Origin: Leucosporidium creatinivorum
Taxonomy: Eukaryota > Basidiomycota > Microbotryomycetes > Leucosporidiales > Leucosporidiaceae
DNA: 64,000 bases
Direction of reading: 5' to 3'
Assembly: GCA_001600635.1 (NCBI GenBank)
Contig: BCKL01000001.1
Coordinates: 151,550-215,549 of the forward strand
The translations under genes and the position numbers were made by a program. Of this stretch, positions 29,104-62,364 are shown one piece after another (position 1 is the stretch's first letter; the number at the start of each line of letters is the position of its first letter). The notes beneath the pieces were generated by a model that did no database searches, was not told where the DNA came from, and saw nothing but the letters and a program-made list of their open reading frames with translations.

Positions 29104-29704
29104 ACAGTTCTTGCTCCGACTACATCCCGGCTCGTTACGCTTCTTCGACCGCGCTACGCCTCTTCGACCGCGCTACGCCTGCTAGAGTGCAGACAGACTC
29201 GCACGCGCGCTGTCGAGCTCATCAACTAGCCCTCGCTCAGCTACAGCCGTTGCTCGCCGCGCTCTCGTCGCCCCTCTCGTGTCGCTCACTTGGAAGCTGC
29301 TGGCTACCGACGTCGGAGCTCAAGATTCGCAGAGCTATATCGTGTAAGTTCAATCACCATCTCGCCGCGCTACTGCCGTCCAGACTGCGCGGAGACAGCG
29401 ATACTCTCGCTCACTCGACGTGCTGAGGGGGTCGCGTCGGTAAGAGAGGCTCCAAGCCTCGCTGAGCTACTCGAGAGGATCCTAGACAACTGGAGATGAC
29501 TACGGCACTGACTTGTGCTCCCTCACTTGTAGGCCTCGCTCTTACCGCCATCGAAAGCTAGGTGGTTGCTGCTCAGCTCTCGCAATCCCCTTCCTCGCCT
29601 TCAGGTGAGTGCTCGAGTATCTCGACTGAGCTTCACAGACAATGAGCTAACTTTCCGTCGCGTACAGCTCGACGCTCCACCTCCCCATCCCTTCTACCGC
29701 CGAC
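29104..29704 (+). repeat. Duplicated leader of F-box-like gene (copy 1)
   Basis: A leader block shared with 33555-34144 and 35855-36430. It ends with two probable 5' UTR introns: 29344..29532 (GTAAGT donor, TTGTAG acceptor) and 29605..29667 (GTGAGT donor, GAGCTAAC branch site, GTACAG acceptor). The segment CGCAATCCCCTTCCTCGCCT before the second intron and CTCGACGCT after it recur almost exactly in copy 3. Confidence 0.75.
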
Positions 29705-30835
29705 ATGCCCTCCGCCGAAGCTTCCCCCGCCGAATCGCCCACCCTCGCGGAGCTCTTCTCTCGCCTACCACTCGAGATCCTCGGCCTCATTCTCGAGCAA
29801 ACGGCCCAGATGATCTACTTTCGCAAGGACGTCGCCCCATTCTGCCTCGTGTCCAAGACCTTCTTGCCCCGCATACAGCGAGAGCTCTACCACAAGGCGT
29901 CGGTCAACTACAAGAGATGGGATATCGACGAGGACGAGCAACCTATCGACCCTCAACCAGAGCTTGAAGTCGAGGACGCCATCCGCCATACGCTCAAGCG
30001 AGCGCCCCATCTCCGACCGCTCGTTCGCCACCTCAACATCTTCGTCGAGTTCTGGAGCTATACCGAGGAGGACGAGCTAGGTGTCCTGCTGTCGATGCAG
30101 AAGGTGCTGAGGCTCTGCCCGCACCTCACAGAGCTCAGCGTGGATCACCATGCGGCGTGGGAGGCGACCGACGACGTCGCGGCCACCGTCGCCGAGCTCG
30201 AGCGCCTGCCACCAATCGAGACGCTCGAGATCTCACACGTCGGACCAGGTGTCATCGCGCTTCTCAAACAACTACCCCATCTGCGCAACCTTCATCTCAG
30301 CATCCCCGTCTTTCGAAACGACGACCCTCTCGATATTCCCCCCTCGTTCCCCTGCTCCCTTACCAGCCTCTCATGCGTCGACAGCCCGCTCCGACTCTTC
30401 TGTCCCCTCACCTCCCACTCCTTTGCAACTCTTGCAAACCTCACCGTCGGATCGGACGTACTGGCCGAGGAAGCCGTTCAAAAGTTTTTGCCCAACTTCG
30501 TCGCTCTGCACAGGCTCCACGTCGTCTACCGCTCCGAGGACCACGACCACTCCCAATCCACAGCCCTCGCCATCTCATTGCTGCCCCAACTCCAGCACCT
30601 CAGCGTCTATGCCCCAGAGACTCGTGCCCTCCATCCGAGTCGTCCCCACCCTTTTGCTACGGCCCTCCTCCTTCGACTTCCCCCGTCTCTCCGAGACCTC
30701 GACTTGCACTCGACCCACACTCACCCCGACAGTATTATACAACTCTTCCACCACCGCGACATCACGCCTCCACCGAAGCTCAAGATCATTCGCCTCGGTC
30801 GAGACGTGCAGCGGGCGCTAGAAAGGGACAGATGA
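29705..30835 (+). CDS. F-box/leucine-rich-like protein (paralogue 1)
   Basis: A single coding exon, 376 residues. It starts MPSAEASPAESPTLAELFSR, then LPLEILGLILEQTAQM and FCLVSKTFLPRIQRELYHKA, a degenerate F-box as in its paralogues. The body is leucine-rich (LPHLRNLHLSIPVF, LPQLQHLSVYAPE, LPPSLRDLDLHSTHTHPDSI). It is likely an SCF substrate adaptor, by family inference. Its nearest relatives are 34145 and 36431, which share the start sequence, the YxRWDxDE region and the leader upstream. It looks intact. Confidence 0.75.
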   Translation: MPSAEASPAESPTLAELFSRLPLEILGLILEQTAQMIYFRKDVAPFCLVSKTFLPRIQRELYHKASVNYKRWDIDEDEQPIDPQPELEVEDAIRHTLKRAPHLRPLVRHLNIFVEFWSYTEEDELGVLLSMQKVLRLCPHLTELSVDHHAAWEATDDVAATVAELERLPPIETLEISHVGPGVIALLKQLPHLRNLHLSIPVFRNDDPLDIPPSFPCSLTSLSCVDSPLRLFCPLTSHSFATLANLTVGSDVLAEEAVQKFLPNFVALHRLHVVYRSEDHDHSQSTALAISLLPQLQHLSVYAPETRALHPSRPHPFATALLLRLPPSLRDLDLHSTHTHPDSIIQLFHHRDITPPPKLKIIRLGRDVQRALERDR

Positions 30836-35854: not shown

Positions 35855-36430
35855 CGGGTTCACTCCTGCTACATCTTGACTTGTCTCGCTTCGACCTCGC
35901 CACAACTACAGGACTACAGAAGGACTCGCACGCGCTACGGAGCCCATCAATTAGGACTCGCTAAGCTACACCCACTCCTCGTCGCTCGACGCGCGCTTGT
36001 CGACACTCGTTTCGTTCGGTTCGAAGCCGCTGGAGACTCGTTTTGGACCTCAGCGCCGATCGGAGTACTTTGCGTGAGCCTACTTACCCTCTCAGAGCTC
36101 CCTTGCCCTCTCGATCGCAAACGGCAAGGCGTGCCAAGTCGACGCGCAGAGGGAGCGGCGCTGGAAGGAAGGCTGGAGGAGCCGGCCTTGCTGCTGTGGA
36201 CAAAGGGACCAGAGTCTTAGGTATCTCAATACTGACTTCCTGTTTCTTGCTCTCCAGCTCGTGCCGCTACCACCTCTGTAAGCTCGGTCGCCGCTGCTCA
36301 GCTCGCGCAATCCCCTTCCTCGCCTGCAGGTGAGTGTTCGAGTGTCGAGACCGAGCTTCACACACCACGAGCTGACCTTTCAAATTGTACAGCTCGACGC
36401 TTCACCTCCCCCGCCTTCCCCACCGCCGAC
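35855..36430 (+). repeat. Duplicated leader of F-box-like gene (copy 3)
   Basis: Shares GGACTACAGAAGGACTCGC, GGAGCCCATC, TAGGACTC and CTACACCC blocks with copy 2, and the CGCAATCCCCTTCCTCGCCT and GTACAGCTCGACGCT ends with copy 1. Probable 5' UTR introns: 36074..36257 and 36330..36392. Confidence 0.75.
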
Positions 36431-37648
36431 ATGCCATCCGCCAAAGCTCTCTCCTCCGCCGAGTCGCCCTCCCTCGCCGAGCTCTTCGCTCGCCTGCCTC
36501 TCGAGGTCCTCAGGCTCATCATCGAGCAGGCAGCCAGAATGAGCACCTGCAAGAAGGAGGCAGCTCGATACTGCCTTGTCTCCAAGGTCTTCCTTCCTCG
36601 GGTCCAGAGGGAGCTGTACCGCTCGGTCACGATCCGCTACGAGCGATGGGACGTTGACGACGCCGAAAAATGGCTTGAGGATCCTCAAGGGCTGTTGATG
36701 AACGATGCGGCTTTCCTCCGGACCCTCACCCAGGCGCCTCACCTCAGCGCACATCTTCGTGAGCTCACCATCGAGTGCCACTTCTACGACTACGAGGACG
36801 ATGCGTTGGAAGTCCGAGATGCGCTCCAAGCCGTCTTCAACGCTTGCCCTCGCCTACCAAGACTCGTCCTGCGTGGAACAGGCGATTGGATCGCGGCTGA
36901 TGATGTCGCCTGGCTGCTCAGCGAACGCTCAGAGATCCCACCGTTGGAGGAACTCGACATCATGAGCCATCAGTTTAGTCTTGGGCTGCTGCTTCGTCAG
37001 CTGCCCCACCTTCGGAAGCTCCACGTCCGCCGTCACGACGACGAACCGGCGCTCGGCGGTCGCTCCTCCCCCTCGGCGCACCCTCCCTATCCCTTCTCCC
37101 TCATCGAGCTCGACTATGACATTCGTTCCTCCGAGGCCTTCCTGGATCTCGCGCCCAAATCACATTCGACTCTCCGCACCCTCCGCACCTCATCAGCCAT
37201 CTTCCAGGACGAGGAGGTTCGCAAGCTCCTTCCCAGCTTCACCGCCCTCCACTATCTGGAGGTCCTGCTGTACGATGGCGACCTCGCCCACCTTGAGCAG
37301 ACGGTCACTTCGATCAACTCTCTACCCTCGGTCCAACACCTCTCCCTCGTCGGCTGGGGCAACGGATCGACCACCCCTCACCTCGGCACCATTTTCCGTC
37401 GTCTACCCTTCTCGGTGCAGACGCTCAACCTCGAAAACCTCTTCATCAAACCCTCCGCCATCCTCCCACCCATCGACCGAACCGACCTCCCCCCACTGCC
37501 CAACCTTCAACTTATTCGCTTCAGCCGAGAAGTGGAGAGAGTATCGCAGGGACGCGGTGAGCCGTACTTGCAGCCAATGTGGCGGGAGGCGTTGGAAGCA
37601 TGTTCTGCGGCGGGTGTAGCTGTCGAGTTTGGGACATGCGATATTTGA
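36431..37648 (+). CDS. F-box/leucine-rich-like protein (paralogue 3)
   Basis: A single coding exon, 405 residues, intact. It starts MPSAKALSSAESPSLAELFA, then RLPLEVLRLIIEQAARM and YCLVSKVFLPRVQRELYRSV, the same F-box-like unit as paralogue 1. Leucine-rich repeats follow (LRQLPHLRKLHVRRHDDEP, LPSVQHLSLVGWGNGS, VQTLNLENLFI). It probably selects substrates for an SCF ligase, by family inference. The close match to 29705, including the leader introns, points to a recent local duplication. Confidence 0.75.
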   Translation: MPSAKALSSAESPSLAELFARLPLEVLRLIIEQAARMSTCKKEAARYCLVSKVFLPRVQRELYRSVTIRYERWDVDDAEKWLEDPQGLLMNDAAFLRTLTQAPHLSAHLRELTIECHFYDYEDDALEVRDALQAVFNACPRLPRLVLRGTGDWIAADDVAWLLSERSEIPPLEELDIMSHQFSLGLLLRQLPHLRKLHVRRHDDEPALGGRSSPSAHPPYPFSLIELDYDIRSSEAFLDLAPKSHSTLRTLRTSSAIFQDEEVRKLLPSFTALHYLEVLLYDGDLAHLEQTVTSINSLPSVQHLSLVGWGNGSTTPHLGTIFRRLPFSVQTLNLENLFIKPSAILPPIDRTDLPPLPNLQLIRFSREVERVSQGRGEPYLQPMWREALEACSAAGVAVEFGTCDI

Positions 37649-53680: not shown

Positions 53681-56600
53681 CTAATGCGGCAAACCCATCG
53701 ACCCCAGCATACTCAGCGCGACCTCCGACTCTTCTCGAGCAGCTGGCAAGCGAGCGCCGAGGCGGAAAGTCAGCTCGCGTCGAGCACCTCGAAGACGCGA
53801 AACAAGCTCACCAATCTTGACCAATCTCTCTGCTAGCTCTATTCCCTCCTCGGTGCCCTCACTAAGCGCCCTCATCCCCCTCTCGACGACGCCGAACTCG
53901 CCCTCGACGACCTCTCGCTTCAAGCTCAACGCCGCGCCGGCAGTGTCCCAGAAGACCTTGCCGAGGGCATGGTGGTCGAGTAAGGAGGAAGGAGTGAGAG
54001 AGGTGATGATCTGCAGGGATTGGAAAAGCGTGGGGAGGGAGGGTAGAGCGTGCAGGAAGAGGGATTCGAGCGTTGGGAGGAGGATGTCGGTCGTTAGTGG
54101 CGCTGGTGGTAAAGGGATGGTGCTTGCGAGTGGTGAGGTAGATGTCGAAGTAGAAGTAAAGTCGAGGAGAGAGGGAAGGAGGGAAGGGAGGTCCGAGCTG
54201 CTCGATGTGAGCGAAAGAGGACGAGAGGTCGACCGAGAGCGTCGATGAGGATGGTCGAAGAGCGAAGGGAACTTGTCCTCGCCGTTTGTCGAGTGTGTAG
54301 CGCCGAAGAGATCGGCGGTGAGGGTTGAGGGAGGCTCGTTCTCGACGGCGACGGTGATGGGTTTTCGCGAGAGACTGACCCGAGTCGTCCGATCTCGGGC
54401 GGGAACGAGGGAGGTGAGCTTGGCGAGGTATCCCTTGGTGCGTTCGGTCGGTGTCAGCGTGGTCGTCGATAAAGCGGAGGTAGATGGCGTGGTCTGCGCC
54501 GAATGCGGCGCACTCATCGTCGCCGAGAGCACCAACTCGAGCTCCAACAACGCCTGCATCTTGGCATGGGGCGAAGGGTGCATCGAGAACCGCTCGAGGA
54601 TCTTGATGAGGTAGGCTGGAGGCTTGGGCGTAGTCGGCAAGTAGGCCTTCGGGACGGGCTTGACTCCCTTCCGCAGCTCCCTCTCCTCAGGCCTCGGCAG
54701 CGGCGACAGCGGACTGGCGAACTCCTCGAACCAAGAGTCGCTGCCGCAGAGTCGGCCTTCGTGGTTTCGAGGGGAGATGAGCGTGCTCGAGAGATCGGAC
54801 CAGAGGTAGGCGGCGAGCTTGAGTTGAAGGCGGAGGAGGAACTCTTCGATCGAGGGGGGCGAGGGAGTGGGATGTTCGTGTGGCTTGAGAAGGGAGATGG
54901 AGCAGGCGCCGAAAGAGAGGATGATGAGGGGTTCTTCTGGTTGGGCGTCGGTGTTGGAGGTCGAAGAAGGGAGCGACGGCGACGAAGGAAGGGGCAGACC
55001 AGCGAGCGAGAGCGGCGCCGAGAGGATGGAAGATCCTGAAGCGAGTAACGACTCTGCAAAGCTCGGCCTTGCGCTCTGCTCCTCCGCTTGCTGCTCCCTC
55101 CCTTGCTGCTGCGAAGCGACCATCCTTGCCAAAACCTCCTTCTCCCTCGCCCAGACTTCCCGCTTGAACACCATCTCCGGCTGACACTCAATAGCCACAG
55201 CCGTCTCCACGAGCATCAACGCCTCGTCGAACGTCGTATCCCCCTCCTCTGGGCGAGTGAAAGAGTAGACGCCGAGCTCTTTCCCCCATGCTTCGAGGGC
55301 GGACTGGGCTTGCGAGCGTTCGAGAGGGGCTCGAGGGAGGTGTAGCTCGGCGAGGCGGGAGCGGAGTTGTAGGCCAAGCGGGCTGGATTGGACGGAGGAG
55401 TACCAGGAGCGGATGCGGAGGTCCTGTCTCGCGGTTAGGAGTGTTAGCTCGGCTCGGCGAAGGAGAACGACACAACTCACGTTCAAGATGCCTCTCTCCT
55501 CCCTCGTTCGATCAAGCAGCGCCATCCTCTGCTGCTCCACCTCCCCCAACCACCTCCTCAGCCTCCGCTCCTCCTCCTCCCGCCTGCTGAGCTCCCTCCT
55601 CAGCGGCTCGACAACCTTCTCGAGCAGTCGCTCCACTCCCACCCCTCGCTCCTCATAGTACCTCAAGACGCTCACCGTCTGCTCGTAAAGAATTTGCAAG
55701 AGGTAATCCTGCTCTGCTGCTGCTCGAGTCGACGCTGAGGCGAGTAGGCCGAGAATGTCGCCGCCCAGAAGGACTGTCCGAGCCCGAGCGAGTGCGAAGA
55801 GGCCACGGCGGAGAAGGTCCATCTCTTGCTGTGTTGGCTTGGCCTTCGTCGATGATGTCGAGTCGTCGAGCTCAGGTTGAGTGCCGGGGGAGTGGAAAGG
55901 GTCCTCCCTCAACGCCGAGCTAGGGCTGGGGCTCGAATGGGGAAAGCTCGGTCGATCCATGACGAGTCGAAGCGCTTCCTGTCGTGGCGAGTGGGGAGGA
56001 GAGATCCAACCGTTGGTTGAGGTGGCGGAAGTCGAGGGCGAGGACTGCGTACGAAGAGGCGGCGAAGGGCGAGGGTGCCGAGTGGGTTCCGGCGGTCTAG
56101 CTGCTCCATCCTCCTGCTGATCGCCGCTGCGGGCCAGCTCCTCGCATGTCGGTAGGCTATCCTTGATCTCGACCTCCCTCGCCGAGCGCGAGAAAGCGAA
56201 CAGCACCGCCTCTCCCCTCCTCTGAGCGGGATTCTCCTCGCGCTCGACCCAACTCAATCGCTCCAAGACCTCCTCGACTCGGTCTCCTAGACTCGTCGCG
56301 GATCCTTCGTCGCTGAGATGTCGTGGCGAGCTGCTCGTCGGGGCCTGCGCCGAGTTGGAAGCCGAGAGGGAAGGCGAGCCGAAAGCCGCCGAGCGTTTGA
56401 AGGACATGTTGATGCTCGAAGGGGAGGGGGAGGGGGAGGAGCTGGAGAAGTAGGAGGCAGAGGAGGACGAGGCGGTGTGCTGGCGTGTCGAAGGCGAGAA
56501 AGGGAACGACGTCCTTGAGGGAAGGATGAGCGCGCCGAACGAGTGAATGAGCGTCGTATACTCGGTCGAAGTGAGGGCGAAGGCGGTGAGCCTTGGTCCT

Positions 56601-58956
56601 CCCTCCTGCTTCTCTCCTCCTTCCCTCGTACTCGACCGACCACTCCCAATAATCCAGCCGTCAACGAACCCCCTCGCCGCCTTCTCCACCTCATCCCCCT
56701 CGCTTCCCACCCTTGCTCCTCGCTCACTCCCCGAGCTCGACCCAACACCCCCACAAGCCTCCACCACAGCGCGATAAACGACCCTCTGCACCCCCCTCCC
56801 CAACCTCGTCGCCTCCTCCTCCGGCAGCCACACCTCATCCAACAGCGCCGAGCTCCTCATCCTCGTCTCGGGTCCTCCTCCAGCATCGTCGACTGATCCA
56901 GCAGAAAGCCGAACACCCGAGAAGCCAGAGGCCGATTCGACACACCCGCCCGAGCTCAACCGACCGAGGCGCGAGCCGAGCCAGGCAAACGAGTACCACC
57001 GGACGAGGGCGAGGAGGAGGACCTTGTGGTGGCAGTGCGCTGCTGGGGACGAGGGGCCGGAGGAGGAGGAGGAGGGGGGGTTCGGCGCCGAGGGCGAAGG
57101 TCGGGCTGAGGCGTCCGCGTCGGAGGGAGAGGACGAGGCAGAAGAAGAAGGAGGGAAAGAGGTCGACAACAGCTGGGAAATCAGAGCTTGCACGAGCGGT
57201 ACCGCCACCGAGTCCCCTTGTCCGTCTGCGTTGCTCGGCCGCGGCGCAGGCGTCAAAGCCACGAGCAGCTCCGCCGACGCTCGTCGTAGGAGAGGGGGGA
57301 GGGGATCTTTCCCCAGGCCGAGGTCTTTGGGCGGTACGTCGGGCGAGGGAGGGAGGAGTTGGGAGGGGGAGAAGCGGGAGGGGGAGAAGCGCGAGTTGGA
57401 GGATGGAGAGGGTGAAGCGAAGGGGGAGGAACTTGAAGTGGTGGAAGGAGGTTTGGGCGGAAGAGGCGGTGGCGTGTCGTCCTCCTTCTCTTTCTCACCC
57501 CTGTTTGGGTTAGGCGACGCTCGAGGAGGTGGTGGGGTTGAGAGTGAAGAAGGATTGGGCGAGGGCGAGTAGAAAGCCGCAGGGATGGGCGAAGCTGGCA
57601 ACGATATCGGGGGGAGCATACTCCCCATGCTCGACAACCCAGCCAAGGGGTAGGCCGTTAGGCTGGAGAATGTGTCTGTAGCGCCGCGGGCGAGGGTGGT
57701 GGACCAGTGGCTGTTGTTTGAGGAGGGGGGTGATTTGGTGCTCGGCGTTGGCGAGGTGGGCGCTTGGGCTTGGGATTGAGGAGGACTGGGCGAGGGAGGA
57801 GGGGAAGGATGGAGAGCGCGCGAGGAGGAAATGAGAGTGAGGAGGATGGATTCGTGTGCTCTGTTGAGGTGGAGGGGGCCCGAGGAGGTTGCTCGTTGGG
57901 CTGAGAAGGGTTTGGCGCCGAGGGAGGAAGAATGAGCCGGGAGAAAGATGCCCATCCCCTCCAACACGCCCAGCATGCCCACCAGGAAATCCTCGAGCTC
58001 CTTCTCCCTCTGCCCTCGTCCTGATCCTGCTGCTGCTCTTTCCCTCGGCGCTCGTCTCGGCTCGGTTCCTCCTCCTCCTCCTCCGCCGAGTCCTAACCCC
58101 AGGCCCAACCCGACTCCTTGCCCCAATCCAAGCCCCACTCCACCTCCACTGGAGGAGCGCACACCACCGCCCTCCTCCTCCTCCTCCTGCGCCTCGCTCT
58201 CCTCCCTCCCCACAATCTCCCTCACCGCCATCTCCCAACATCCCACCACCATCTGCAACACTCCCTCGGCTCCTCGCGTGGCAAGTAGAAGCCTGACGAG
58301 TATCTCCAACGGCGTCTCCCCCCCCTTCCCTGCTGGAGAAAGCAGGGAGGACAGCGCCGAGCCCTCCAGCGTCGCTATCCCAGCGCCGAGCAAGCTCGGG
58401 TCGCCGTCGCCGTCGGCGAGAAGGAGGAGTTGTAGGGAGTGTAGGATGGTGCTGCTCGAGTGAGGGGGGAGGGAAGGGTGGGAGAGCCAGCTCTTTGTCG
58501 AGTAGTCGGAGGGCGCCGAGGGAGGGTCAGGGGAGGAGAAGGCGAAGGCGAGTTCGAACGAGGTCATGGCGCGGTGATAGGCCTGGGCGAAGGCTAGTTC
58601 GGTATCCTCCTCCTCCTTCTGAGTGCTTCCGGCCGTCGAACCCCTGCTCTTCGCCGCCCCCGCCCCCGCCCCCGCCCCCGCCGAAGCGAGAGCGTCAGGC
58701 TCGGAGCTGTGCATCTGTCGTCTTAGCAGGATTCCTAGCGTCTCCCTCGCGCGAGTCATGTTATTCAATGCCCGTTGTTGTCGTAGCAATCCGCCGAGTT
58801 GGGCGTGCAGGAGGGTAGAGAGGGAGAGGGAGGGAGCGGGCGTAGCGAGCTGAGCGAGGAGGAAGGTGAGGGATTCGGGGGCTGAAGCATGCACAGGGAC
58901 GAGGGGTATGTTAGCCGGATATTGGCCGAGTAGAAAAGAAGGGAGAGCGAACCCAT
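53681..58956 (-). CDS. Large protein with possible VPS9 domain
   Basis: Four exons in coding order: 58953..58956 (only ATGG), 55481..58881, 53812..55423 and 53681..53742, 1692 residues. It starts MAPESLTFLLAQLATPAPSL. Helical N-terminal part with LNNMTRARETLGILLRRQM and EILVRLLLATRGAEGVLQMV; then Ser/Pro and Gly/Leu low complexity (LGLGLGLGGG near 58100); a coiled coil around EPLRRELSRREEEERRLRRW (about residue 1110); and near the C terminus SPHAKMQALLELELVLSA, and after about 150 residues TTDILLPTLESLFLHALPSL and FQSLQIITSL. This DILLPTL...ALPSL...QII pattern resembles a VPS9 (Rab5 exchange) domain split by an insertion. That assignment is inference. An endosomal trafficking role would follow if true. 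Introns 2 and 3 are canonical; intron 1 has a GTTCGC donor. Confidence 0.7.
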
Positions 58957-60328
58957 CGCCAGCGGAGACGCCTGCTCGAGCTCGAGCTCGAGTCCCGTGC
59001 GTTTCAGCGTTCAGAGCCTCAGAGGCCTAGGGGAGCTGTAGGAGAGCAAAGCAGAGTCAGCGGGGGCTTCTAAGCGATGCAGGCTGTAGAGAGGTATAGC
59101 TTACTGATGTTGCTGCTCCGAGGAGCTGTACTGTAGTCGAGAGAAGCGGCAGAAAGGAAGAGGGAGGGACGCGCGAAGCATAGACGGTCAATTGAGCGCT
59201 GAGCGAGCGAGCGAGGAGGGGACTGTCTTACTGCACAAGCAAGACAAAGAATGGAACTGAAGATAACTCCACGCGAGTGATGTGCTACATCTCAGCTCTA
59301 AAAAAAGAGAAGTGCACCGAAGCCTTGTTAGCCGAGCGGATGAGCTACAGCTAGCTGGCTCCCAGCTCGTCGAGCATTAGAGCTCGTGCTGCAGCAGACG
59401 CGCATCAACGCGCTCCCCCCCTTGAGAGATGAAAGTCAGACTTGCCTTGTAGGGGATGAGGGCCAAGGGGGGAAGTTCGGCGATGGGGCCCCTATTGCTT
59501 CTGCAGCTTGATAGAAAGCTTTACAGCAGCGGGAGGCTTCGCTGTGGGATGCTCTGAGATATCTGCTGTACGCCTGCAGCCAAGAGACCAGCGGAAGCCG
59601 ACAATGGTGAAGTACAGAACCTCCCAGCCTTCGCTCTCTCCTTCCTCCCACTCGCTCGCCTTCATCTCACTCTCGTACAGCCCCAGCCCTCACTCTACAA
59701 CGACCTTCCTACTATCCTTACAACATCGCCTACAACTCCTCTCCCAGCACTCAAGCCCGAGCCAGCCCTCTCGACGAGTCAACCTTCCTGATGCGGCTCA
59801 AACGCGAGTGAGAGGTCTGGCCGTCCCGCTGGGCTGTACCTTTTGCGGGTCGCTGCTCCGCTTGCTTTCAAGTTGGAGGAAGCTGGCTGTTGCTGCTGCG
59901 GAGGGAGCTGTAGGCCATTAGAGCTGGGAGCTGCCCGCACCTCAACCGGGGAGACGGAGCAGCAGCGCCAGAGCAGCCAGCGAGGAAGTGAAGGGCTGCA
60001 GCTGGATTAGGGAGGGGAGCACTCAAGTGGTGAGGATCCTAGAGTCTCAGTGCCCGGCCAAGTGCGTCCTCTGCTCGGGAGCGAGGCTCTTTCGTCTCCG
60101 CTCTTTGTCCTCTCCCTCTCGCTTCATCTCCCGCTACGGTACAGCAGCAGCACTCGACCAAGTCGACCTACACCACTACAACACTACACAGGCCCGACGG
60201 TCCTCCCTTCCGTCCTTCTCGTCTCGCCCTCTCAGCTCAGTTCGGCCAGCCATCCCATCCCGCCTTGTCTCGCCTCTCCAACTCTCTCCCAGCAGCAGCA
60301 CCACCACTACCACGCTCGAGCAGCAAGC
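58957..60328. other. Long intergenic region, divergent
   Basis: Upstream of both flanking genes. A frame from an ATG at 59604 (about 106 codons, Ser/Leu/Arg-rich) has no supporting features and was not called. 60100-60190 looks like a 5' UTR (CTACACCACTACAACACTAC) of the plus-strand gene. Nothing else recognised. Confidence 0.35.
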
Positions 60329-62364
60329 ATGCGCTCCCTCCCCCTCTTCCTCCTCAGCACCACCCTCCTTCTCCTCTCCTCCTCTTCCCCAGCTCTCGCC
60401 GCCGCCGACGGTCGAATCCAACCTCGCGGCGTGAAAAGAGTAACGACCGTACCAGCAGAGTACAAAGCCAAGAGTGGGAATACTCATGTCGTAGCCAAGG
60501 GGGTGAAGAAGCCCAAGATTGGGGGTTTTAGCGATTCGAGTGAGTTGGGATTCGATTCGGCTTTGGGTTGAGCCGCGAGCATGGCAGCTGGCTGACCTAT
60601 CGCTCCCTTTCTCTCCTTGCTTTCCCTCACTCCCTACCGCCACCGCCACGAACTCGCCCCGCCATCGCCGAACCCCACCTCCTCGCAGCCCACCCCTCCC
60701 TCGACCCAACGATTCGCTCCCTCCCCTCTTCCTCCCACTCGCACCTCTCACAAATCAAGCGCTCCCTCCTCGCCCTCCTCGCCGGTTCAGCCGTGCAAGA
60801 TCCCTCCGTCTCCTCCTCCTCCTCCGCCGAGAAGAGGTCGGCCATGCCGGTTTTGGCTTTGCCCGCTGAGCACGAGCATGAAGCGGGAGTTAGGGAGGAG
60901 CGCGTGAGGAGGGGATTGGTGGCGATGATTATTGGGGGAGCGGTGGGGGATCCGAACGTCGTTAATTCTGGGTCGGGCTCGGGCTGGGCGGGGAGGGAGA
61001 AGCGAGGGGAGCAGGCCAAGAGGGGAGAGGCCAATGAGGAGAAACGATGGGTCTGGGATTCGGTCATCATTCAGGATGGGGATACGCGGTCGAATCTACC
61101 GCCGCCGGGGTCGAATGTCAACTATTTCTCGAGTACGTTCTCGCTCCTCGCTCCTCGGCTTCGGCGCTGACCTCCCTCCCTCTCTCTCCCTTCCCCTCCC
61201 CCAGACTCCGCCCCCGCCAACACCCCCTCCGGCACCCCTCCTCCTCCCATCCTTTCAGACCCCTTCCCCCCTCCCTCATCCACCCCTCCTCCCCTCGTCA
61301 TCAAACCCGCTCGCCAATCCCCACCTCCTCCTCCTCCTCCTCCTTCGACCACACCCGCCGAGCACGAGCATTCGACGGCCAAAGCGAGGAAGATGTGGAA
61401 TGACCCGAGTTTGCAGTCGAAGAAGGCTGCTCATATCGTTGGAGCCGTCTCGCCCGCTGCTGCTGCTAAACCGACGACGACGCCGGGAGGAGGAGGAGGC
61501 GCGCAGAGGACGCCTGCTGCAGCCGCCGAGGAGGAGCAGCAGCAGCAGAAGGTCGCCGCCGCCCCCGCCGCCCTCGTCGCCCAGGAGCAGCTCGCCGAGG
61601 GAGCAGAGCAAGAGCACGACCCTCACAAATTCCCGCGCCCGCGCCCTCCTTCTTCCCCTGCCTCTCCCTCACCCTCACCTTCTCCCTCACCCTCCACCGC
61701 CGAGCAGAAGGACCTGAAGAAGCGCGTCTACCGCGGCCCAATCCTCCAAGACGGCGTCCTCACCGAAGAAGTGCCCATCCAGGGAGGGGACGCTACGCCC
61801 TCGTCCATCCCTCAGGCGCCTGTGCTCACCTCCGTCTCGGTTGAGGTCGAGGTCGAGGGCACGGGGACGGCGAGCGCCGAGGAGCCGGTGCAGACGGAGC
61901 AGAGTTTGATGGGCGCGTTTGTGGGCGATTTGTTGGGAGAGATTGGGGAGGCGGTGGGCTTGGGATCGAGCTCGGGCGAGGACGAGGGCGAGGGCGAAGG
62001 CGAGGGCGAGGGCGAGGCGGCGAGCGACGTCGAACGGAGGGCTGGTATGTCGCTTCCTCTCTCTGTGCTCTCTCTTTCTTCCTTCTCTCCCTCTCTCTCT
62101 TCCCTCTTTGCTCGGTGCGAGGTGCGCTCGTTAAGCTGACATTATCTCTGCTCTGCCTGCTCTCGTACAGTGCACGCCCACGCCCACGCCCCCCACCACC
62201 AAGCGCGAGGATTGACTCGACAAGGCCACGCCCCTCGACTTGGGCTCGGCGCTGCTCCCAACTCGCCGAAGCAGGGGGAGAAGGAGAAGATGAGGGTCAA
62301 GAGGGTGTATAAGGCGAGGGAGGGGTTTGTGGAGAGGAGGAGGGGGGTGAAGCAGGTGGAGTAG
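60329..62364 (+). CDS. Secreted Lys-Arg-rich protein, possible Kex2 substrate
   Basis: Four exons: 60329..60539, 60689..61132, 61205..62044 and 62171..62364, 562 residues. A clear signal peptide (MRSLPLFLLSTTLLLLSSSS, then PALAAADG) is followed by many dibasic sites: RGVKR, SQIKR, SAEKR, EERVRR, GREKR, EQAKR, NEEKR, LKKR and RVKR. Between them lie short segments with repeat-like pairs: LLAGSAVQDPSV and IIGGAVGDPNVV; PAEHEHEAG and PAEHEHSTA; WDSVIIQDGDT and RGPILQDGVLT. Pro-, Ala- and Gly-Glu-rich low complexity fills the rest. Few cysteines. The pattern fits a secretory precursor cut by Kex2 into peptides, or a disordered cell-wall protein. No known family recognised. Confidence 0.75.

What the first reader, a model, noticed from the sequence alone, without database searches (positions are those of the whole stretch)
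60329..62364. Secreted precursor with nine or more dibasic sites and repeat-like segments
A signal peptide is followed by segments bounded by KR, RR or KK. Several segments come in recognisable pairs (LLAGSAVQDP/IIGGAVGDP, PAEHEHE/PAEHEHS, VIIQDG/PILQDG). This is the organisation of Kex2-processed repeat proteins, which yield pheromones, surface peptides or cyclic peptides in fungi. No known family was recognised, so it is the best candidate here for an undescribed system.
Basis: inference. Interest (0 to 1): 0.72.

Follow-up and report, generated by a model that had tools for sequence, protein, structure and literature searches.

The report
Secreted Kex2-site-rich fungal polyprotein
A fungal gene appears to encode a secreted protein that the cell's own Kex2 protease would cut into a set of mostly different small peptides; the cutting sites are well above chance, but the repeats are few and old, and what the peptides do is not known.

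Summary
A four-exon gene (60329-62364, +) encodes a 562-residue protein with a signal-like leader and no cysteine. KR sites are far above chance: 8 against 1.8 expected (0 of 5000 shuffles), and 1.49 per 100 residues against 0.28 in 73 control frames. Order matters: KR:RK is 8:1 here and 57:56 in 70 control frames. The genome holds a kexin gene.

The three named motif pairs are real (each P<=5e-4, at most 0.033 after correction for 66 comparisons). They suggest one old block duplication (P=0.002, optimistic, with a weak middle match). But no motif reaches three clear copies, and segments after dibasic sites are not alike on average. So it fails the published three-copy test for Kex2-processed repeat proteins (KEPs) that I could re-implement.

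Best reading: a Kex2-cut polyprotein of mostly unlike peptides, laid out like Ustilago Rep1 or Candida Ece1. Cleavage is inferred. Function is a weak guess: surface-active or structural peptides. No relative was found, but no fungal collection beyond the own genome could be searched. New variant of a known kind; modest interest.

The parts
60329..60539 (+). exon 1: signal-like leader (residues 1-25), short pro-piece ending GVKR (KR at 36-37), then VTTVPAEYK...
   Evidence: coding score in frame 0.149, best of six frames
60329..60403 (+). signal-like leader MRSLPLFLLSTTLLLLSSSSPALAA (cut after residue 25 is a guess by the -3,-1 rule, recalled)
   Evidence: hydropathy; no signal-peptide program was available
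60540..60688 (+). intron 1, GTGAGT..GCAG, CTGAC motif 97 nt before the end, first AG after it is used
   Evidence: and reading
60689..61132 (+). exon 2: holds 5 of the 8 KR (94, 119, 175, 181, 189) and one RR (144)
   Evidence: in-frame coding score 0.168 against -0.173 and -0.064 on the same strand
60763..60831 (+). motif A, first copy: [27 protein letters not shown] (residues 96-118)
   Evidence: pair with 146-174: 10 of 20 aligned residues identical, P 5e-5
60838..60906 (+). motif B, first copy: KR|SAMPVLALPAEHEHEAGVREERV|RR (residues 121-143)
   Evidence: pair with the 269-275 region, P 5e-5
60913..60999 (+). motif A, second copy: RR|GLVAMIIGGAVGDPNVVNSGSGSGWAGRE|KR (residues 146-174)
61048..61080 (+). 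motif C, first copy: KR|WVWDSVIIQDG (residues 191-201)
   Evidence: pair with 393-402, P 5e-4
61133..61204 (+). intron 2, GTACGT..CCAG
   Evidence: note that this intron scores as high as the exons by codon usage
61205..62044 (+). exon 3: proline- and glutamate-rich spacers with second copies of B and C
   Evidence: coding score in frame 0.203, best of six frames
61354..61374 (+). motif B, second copy PAEHEHS (residues 269-275); not directly preceded by a dibasic site
61426..61455 (+). possible degenerate third copy of A after KK: AAHIVGAVSP (residues 293-302)
   Evidence: weak: P 0.12 alone; in order inside the block alignment
61726..61755 (+). motif C, second copy: KKR|VYRGPILQDG (residues 393-402)
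62045..62170 (+). intron 3, GTATGT..ACAG
62171..62364 (+). exon 4: His-rich piece AVHAHAHAPHH..., last KR (542-543), stop TAG
   Evidence: coding score in frame 0.087, below two reverse frames (0.119, 0.089)

Best explanation
A secreted prepro-polyprotein. Shown: an open reading frame across three consensus introns, a signal-like leader, and a specific excess of KR. Inferred: it enters the secretory path, the genome's kexin cuts it at most of its 11 KR/RR places, and a Kex1-type carboxypeptidase trims the ends. Full cutting would leave five pieces of 23-56 residues, five of 4-10 (the first being the pro-piece) and two long ones (200 and 103), mostly unlike one another. Two related pieces carry a hydrophobic head (SLLALLAGSAVQDP, GLVAMIIGGAVGDP) and a polar tail rich in Ser or Gly. 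My most likely function, weakly held (about 0.25), is a surface-active or structural role at the cell wall, in the manner of Rep1 peptides. The motif pairs would come from an old internal duplication.
For: KR 8 against 1.78 (0 of 5000 shuffles); density 5 times that of 73 control frames, the highest of the 27 control frames of 250 aa or more being 0.77 per 100 against 1.49; KR:RK 8:1 against 57:56 (Fisher P 0.026); kexin gene, best solved match Kexin 2id4 E 4e-91; no membrane-length hydrophobic stretch after the leader (top 19-residue mean 1.26), no Cys, no sequon; P1' and P2' free of K/R at 11 of 11 KR/RR places, acidic P2' at 2 of 11, in the direction of the preference in PMC2515848 (abstract and passages), though with about 11% K+R this alone is weak; motif pairs.
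Against: No orthologue, expression or peptide data, so selection on the sites is not shown. RR, KK and RK are not in excess, and the wider context [LIVAP]x[KR]R only reaches P 0.055. 359 of 537 residues lie in KR/RR-bounded pieces longer than 50 residues. The two hydrophobic-headed pieces have net charge -2 and -1 and low helical moments (0.99 and 1.16; the other pieces that were scored range 0.74-2.04), which does not suggest a membrane-lytic helix. The control frames run stop to stop and are not proven genes.
Confidence: 0.5

Rival explanations
1. An ordinary disordered secreted or wall-associated protein with one Kex2-cut pro-piece (GVKR at 34-37); the other dibasic pairs are not used or only help turnover.
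For: The first KR lies 10 residues after the guessed leader end, where pro-pieces end; 359 of 537 residues lie in long KR/RR-bounded pieces and 235 of 537 are low-complexity by my mask; PMC2515848 reports structural constraints that prevent cutting (abstract).
Against: Five of the 8 KR and one RR lie between residues 94 and 190, 6 to 31 residues apart, and KR but not RK is in excess.
Confidence: 0.3
2. A decayed or diverging Kex2-processed repeat protein: once three or more copies, now worn down to pairs.
For: Block of B, A-like and C seen twice in order (P 0.002, optimistic), with A once more in front.
Against: No motif has a third clear copy; the possible third A copy is not significant alone (P 0.12).
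Confidence: 0.12
3. Not a secreted protein, or the gene model is wrong in part.
For: No transcript. Exon 4 scores weakly (0.087, two reverse frames 0.119 and 0.089), and introns 2 and 3 score as high as exons in some frames (up to 0.363 and 0.257), so codon usage does not separate exons from introns here.
Against: All three introns fit GTRNGT..CTGAC..AG with the first AG after CTGAC used; exons 1-3 score best of six frames in the modelled frame, whole CDS 0.173 against -0.109 and -0.053; the leader is a clear hydrophobic run.
Confidence: 0.08

Closest known systems
Rep1 (repellent) of Ustilago maydis
   Same: Secreted basidiomycete precursor of similar size (652 aa there, 562 here), Kex2 sites, peptides of tens of residues and a long remainder (PMC4617103, passages)
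   Different: Rep1 has twelve amphipathic repeats; here motifs occur at most twice clearly and the hydrophobic heads are short. No sequence comparison with Rep1 was run.
Ece1 of Candida albicans
   Same: Signal peptide and a chain of KR-separated peptides, one of them a toxin among seven others (PMC12153327, passages)
   Different: 271 aa, an ascomycete, one member is a lytic toxin; nothing here suggests that activity. Compared by layout only.
Kex2-processed repeat proteins (KEPs, dikaritin precursors, alpha-pheromone precursors)
   Same: Leader plus several KR/RR-bounded segments
   Different: Fewer than three copies of any motif by my test
Kex2-processed pro-domain (K2PP) secreted proteins
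   Same: One KR shortly after the leader (PMC8528282, passages)
   Different: More KR sites downstream and no Pfam domain in the rest

Membership tests
KEP (Le Marquer 2019, PMC6339444) | signal peptide, no membrane helix | tested here: inconclusive
   hydrophobic leader by eye and hydropathy, no later 19-residue mean above 1.26; SignalP and TMHMM not available
KEP (Le Marquer 2019, PMC6339444) | at least four fragments after cutting at KR/RR | tested here: met
   11 fragments, the C-terminal one not counted
KEP (Le Marquer 2019, PMC6339444) | at least three fragments sharing one motif (FIMO) | tested here: not met
   own re-implementation at P<1e-4, not the authors' script: largest pattern 2 with KR/RR and with KR/RR/KK cutting, 1 with KK alone; a made-up four-copy control gave 4
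KEP (Umemura 2020, PMC7329392) | three or more tandem repeats of 8 aa or more between Kex2 sites | tested here: not met
   judged (pairs only, A pair 10 of 20 identical); the author's code was not run
KEP (Vogt 2022, PMC9769878) | one fragment similar to at least two others by BLAST | tested here: inconclusive
   no fragment with two partners, but the BLAST procedure with its short-fragment rule was not run
Dikaritin-type RiPP precursor | UstYa (DUF3328) gene nearby | tested here: inconclusive
   no hit in own genome, but the family rang in none of the 14 controls either
Kex2 substrate | cut by Kex2 in the Golgi | not testable with these tools
   kexin gene present; cutting needs an experiment
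Rep1-like repellent | amphipathic repeats forming amyloid-like fibrils | not tested
   no aggregation test and no comparison with Rep1 run; motifs at most two clear copies

The most novel reading that the evidence does not exclude
A lineage-specific Kex2 polyprotein that releases a mixture of unlike peptides (hydrophobic A type, His/Glu-rich B type, QDG C type) in fixed order from a duplicated block, so that the precursor sets the ratio of a multi-part peptide mixture. This would be a kind of precursor that copy-number screens for KEPs miss by design.
Probability: 0.15. Interest if true: 0.6.

Novelty: new variant of a known kind. Interest (0 to 1): 0.35.

Why it matters
The published KEP screens whose methods I saw ask for about three similar copies of one motif, so precursors of mostly unlike peptides, such as this one, are passed over. 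Excess of KR over RK, measured against the protein's own composition, may be a simple repeat-free way to find them. If peptides are really released, this fungus has a peptide mixture with no described function.

Tried and rejected
Known family: Pfam gave no match at E<=10 (HMMER's filters drop most matches above about 0.1).

Paralogues: the own-genome search gave 11 rows: 4 are the gene's exons, one is the gene's own reverse strand, and 6 are elsewhere (best E 0.007). I compared those 6 loci locally: L014 matched at 1e-4 without low-complexity filtering, but is read through a stop and falls to E 0.12 with it; L018 matched at E 0.42 unfiltered only; the other four gave nothing at E<=1. One search (residues 26-218) gave the gene itself and 3 other rows, best E 1.0. 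I take all of these for chance.

Relatives: viral contigs (4 stretches matched a pattern, none confirmed) and genome contigs (74 stretches, none confirmed). By their descriptions these hold viral and prokaryotic DNA, so this says nothing about conservation among fungi.

RiPP cluster: no UstYa hit (uninformative). Of 9 window frames scanned against Pfam, 4 had a match at E<=0.01 (BTB, Pex2_Pex12, YL1, and a sub-threshold LRR), none a peptide-tailoring enzyme. The other frames of the window were not scanned; the frames of L026 (10 kb downstream) were listed but not scanned. Organism: a phenylalanine ammonia-lyase piece matched best to 1y2m/1t6j (from Rhodosporidium toruloides as I recall). The 5.8S rRNA search found nothing.

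Structure prediction was not run: I judged that an orphan, low-complexity, spliced protein without an alignment would give no usable model.

Papers: searches. One search (kex2 + secreted peptides + Microbotryomycetes) found 0 papers.

Full report
What is there. The region holds a gene model on the + strand with four exons (60329-60539, 60689-61132, 61205-62044, 62171-62364) and a 562-residue product. All three introns begin GTRNGT, end in AG, carry CTGAC, and use the first AG after it. Against codon usage from six long frames of the window, exons 1-3 score best of six frames in the modelled frame; exon 4 is weak (0.087, two reverse frames at 0.119 and 0.089). Introns 2 and 3 score as high as exons in some frames (0.363, 0.257), so this measure supports the frame but not the exon borders. 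The product starts with a hydrophobic leader, has no cysteine, no N-glycosylation sequon and 17 histidines.

Are the sites more than chance? After residue 25 there are 16 dibasic pairs. KR occurs 8 times against 1.78 expected when the residues are shuffled (0 of 5000). RR (4), KK (3) and RK (1) are within chance. Controls came from the window plus 30 kb next to it and 5 kb of another contig: 76 longest non-overlapping stop-to-stop frames of at least 150 residues, of which 3 starting beyond 60300 were dropped (two of this gene and the neighbour from 62812). In the other 73, KR was seen 56 times against 50.3 expected, 0.28 per 100 residues against 1.49 here; the highest of the 27 frames of 250 residues or more was 0.77. 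KR plus RR together were 309 against 242 expected in the controls, so RR runs high in general and only KR is telling. In 70 such frames (L028 left out, only this gene's frames dropped) KR:RK is 57:56; here it is 8:1 (Fisher P 0.026). A bias for KR over RK is what a kexin substrate should show. The control frames are not proven genes.

Are the repeats more than chance? Partly. Ungapped self-comparison with low-complexity stretches masked (235 of 537 residues) is borderline: best score 35, P 0.06; second P 0.045; ranks 3-10 P 0.07-0.33. Segments that follow dibasic sites are not alike on average (P 0.83-0.99). The best pair stands out only at 14 residues with KR/RR sites (P 0.003 against random anchors, 0.0007 against shuffles); at 8 and 12 residues it is 0.07-0.20 against random anchors. 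Between dibasic-bounded fragments, 66 pairs were compared. Aligning residues 116-215 with 256-425 puts B, an A-like stretch and C in the same order twice, score 79.8 against 53.7 +/- 7.8 in 2000 shuffles within 25-residue windows (P 0.002). I chose these two stretches after seeing the pairs, so this P is optimistic, and the A-like match is weak by itself (P 0.12).

Family test. Le Marquer and co-workers require at least three fragments sharing a motif (PMC6339444, methods section seen). My re-implementation finds at most two. Umemura requires three or more tandem repeats (PMC7329392, methods section seen), and Vogt and co-workers a fragment similar to at least two others (PMC9769878, methods section seen). 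The protein therefore is not a KEP by the test I could run, although it may work like one.

Surroundings. The genome (27.7 Mb, 63 contigs) has one locus with kexin P-domain matches and an adjacent frame whose best solved match is Kexin. Kex1 and Ste13 genes were not looked for. The flanking frames (1781 aa on the - strand at 53681-59026; 396 aa from 62812) have no Pfam match at E<=0.01. Nothing seen suggests a modified-peptide cluster, but only 9 frames were scanned and the UstYa search had no working control.

How it most likely works. KR enrichment, order bias, leader and kexin together make multi-site Kex2 cutting the best reading (0.5). Full cutting at KR/RR would leave pieces of 10, 56, 23, 23, 29, 4, 6, 200, 103, 44, 10 and 6 residues. 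Rep1 of Ustilago is processed to ten peptides of 35-53 residues and one of 228 (PMC4617103, passages); Ece1 of Candida to eight peptides (PMC12153327, passages). The layout here lies between the two. A surface or structural role is a guess from the two hydrophobic-headed pieces; their net charge (-2, -1) and low helical moments argue against a lytic helix. No evidence bears on pheromone activity.

Limits. No fungal relative could be searched for, so selection on the sites is not shown; that is the main gap. Cleavage, secretion and expression are all inferred.

Noticed in passing
window 60329-62364, and 87 predicted introns in window, L026, L027, L029: Exons tend to run from C-rich to G-rich: in all four exons of this gene GC skew is -0.41 to -0.82 in the first quarter and +0.26 to +0.88 in the last, though not steadily in exons 2 and 3. 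Around 87 introns predicted by consensus (this gene left out), the 30 nt before the 5' splice site have skew +0.18 and the 150 nt after the 3' site -0.23 to -0.09; 1241 random GT..AG sites stay between -0.002 and +0.043.
   Followed up: partly
G000:C13:55022-55579 (-) and 60594-61151 (+): Two sugar-transporter matches with the same score and the same profile range lie about 5 kb apart in opposite orientation, possibly an inverted duplication.
   Followed up: no
window 53681-59026 (-): A 1781-codon open frame without Pfam match at E<=0.01 next to the gene.
   Followed up: partly
window 29651-30835 and 36236-37648 (+): Two frames whose translations share a very similar stretch (around AESP.LAELF.RLPLE) and look like F-box/leucine-rich paralogues by eye; only the first has a match, a sub-threshold LRR.
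   Followed up: no
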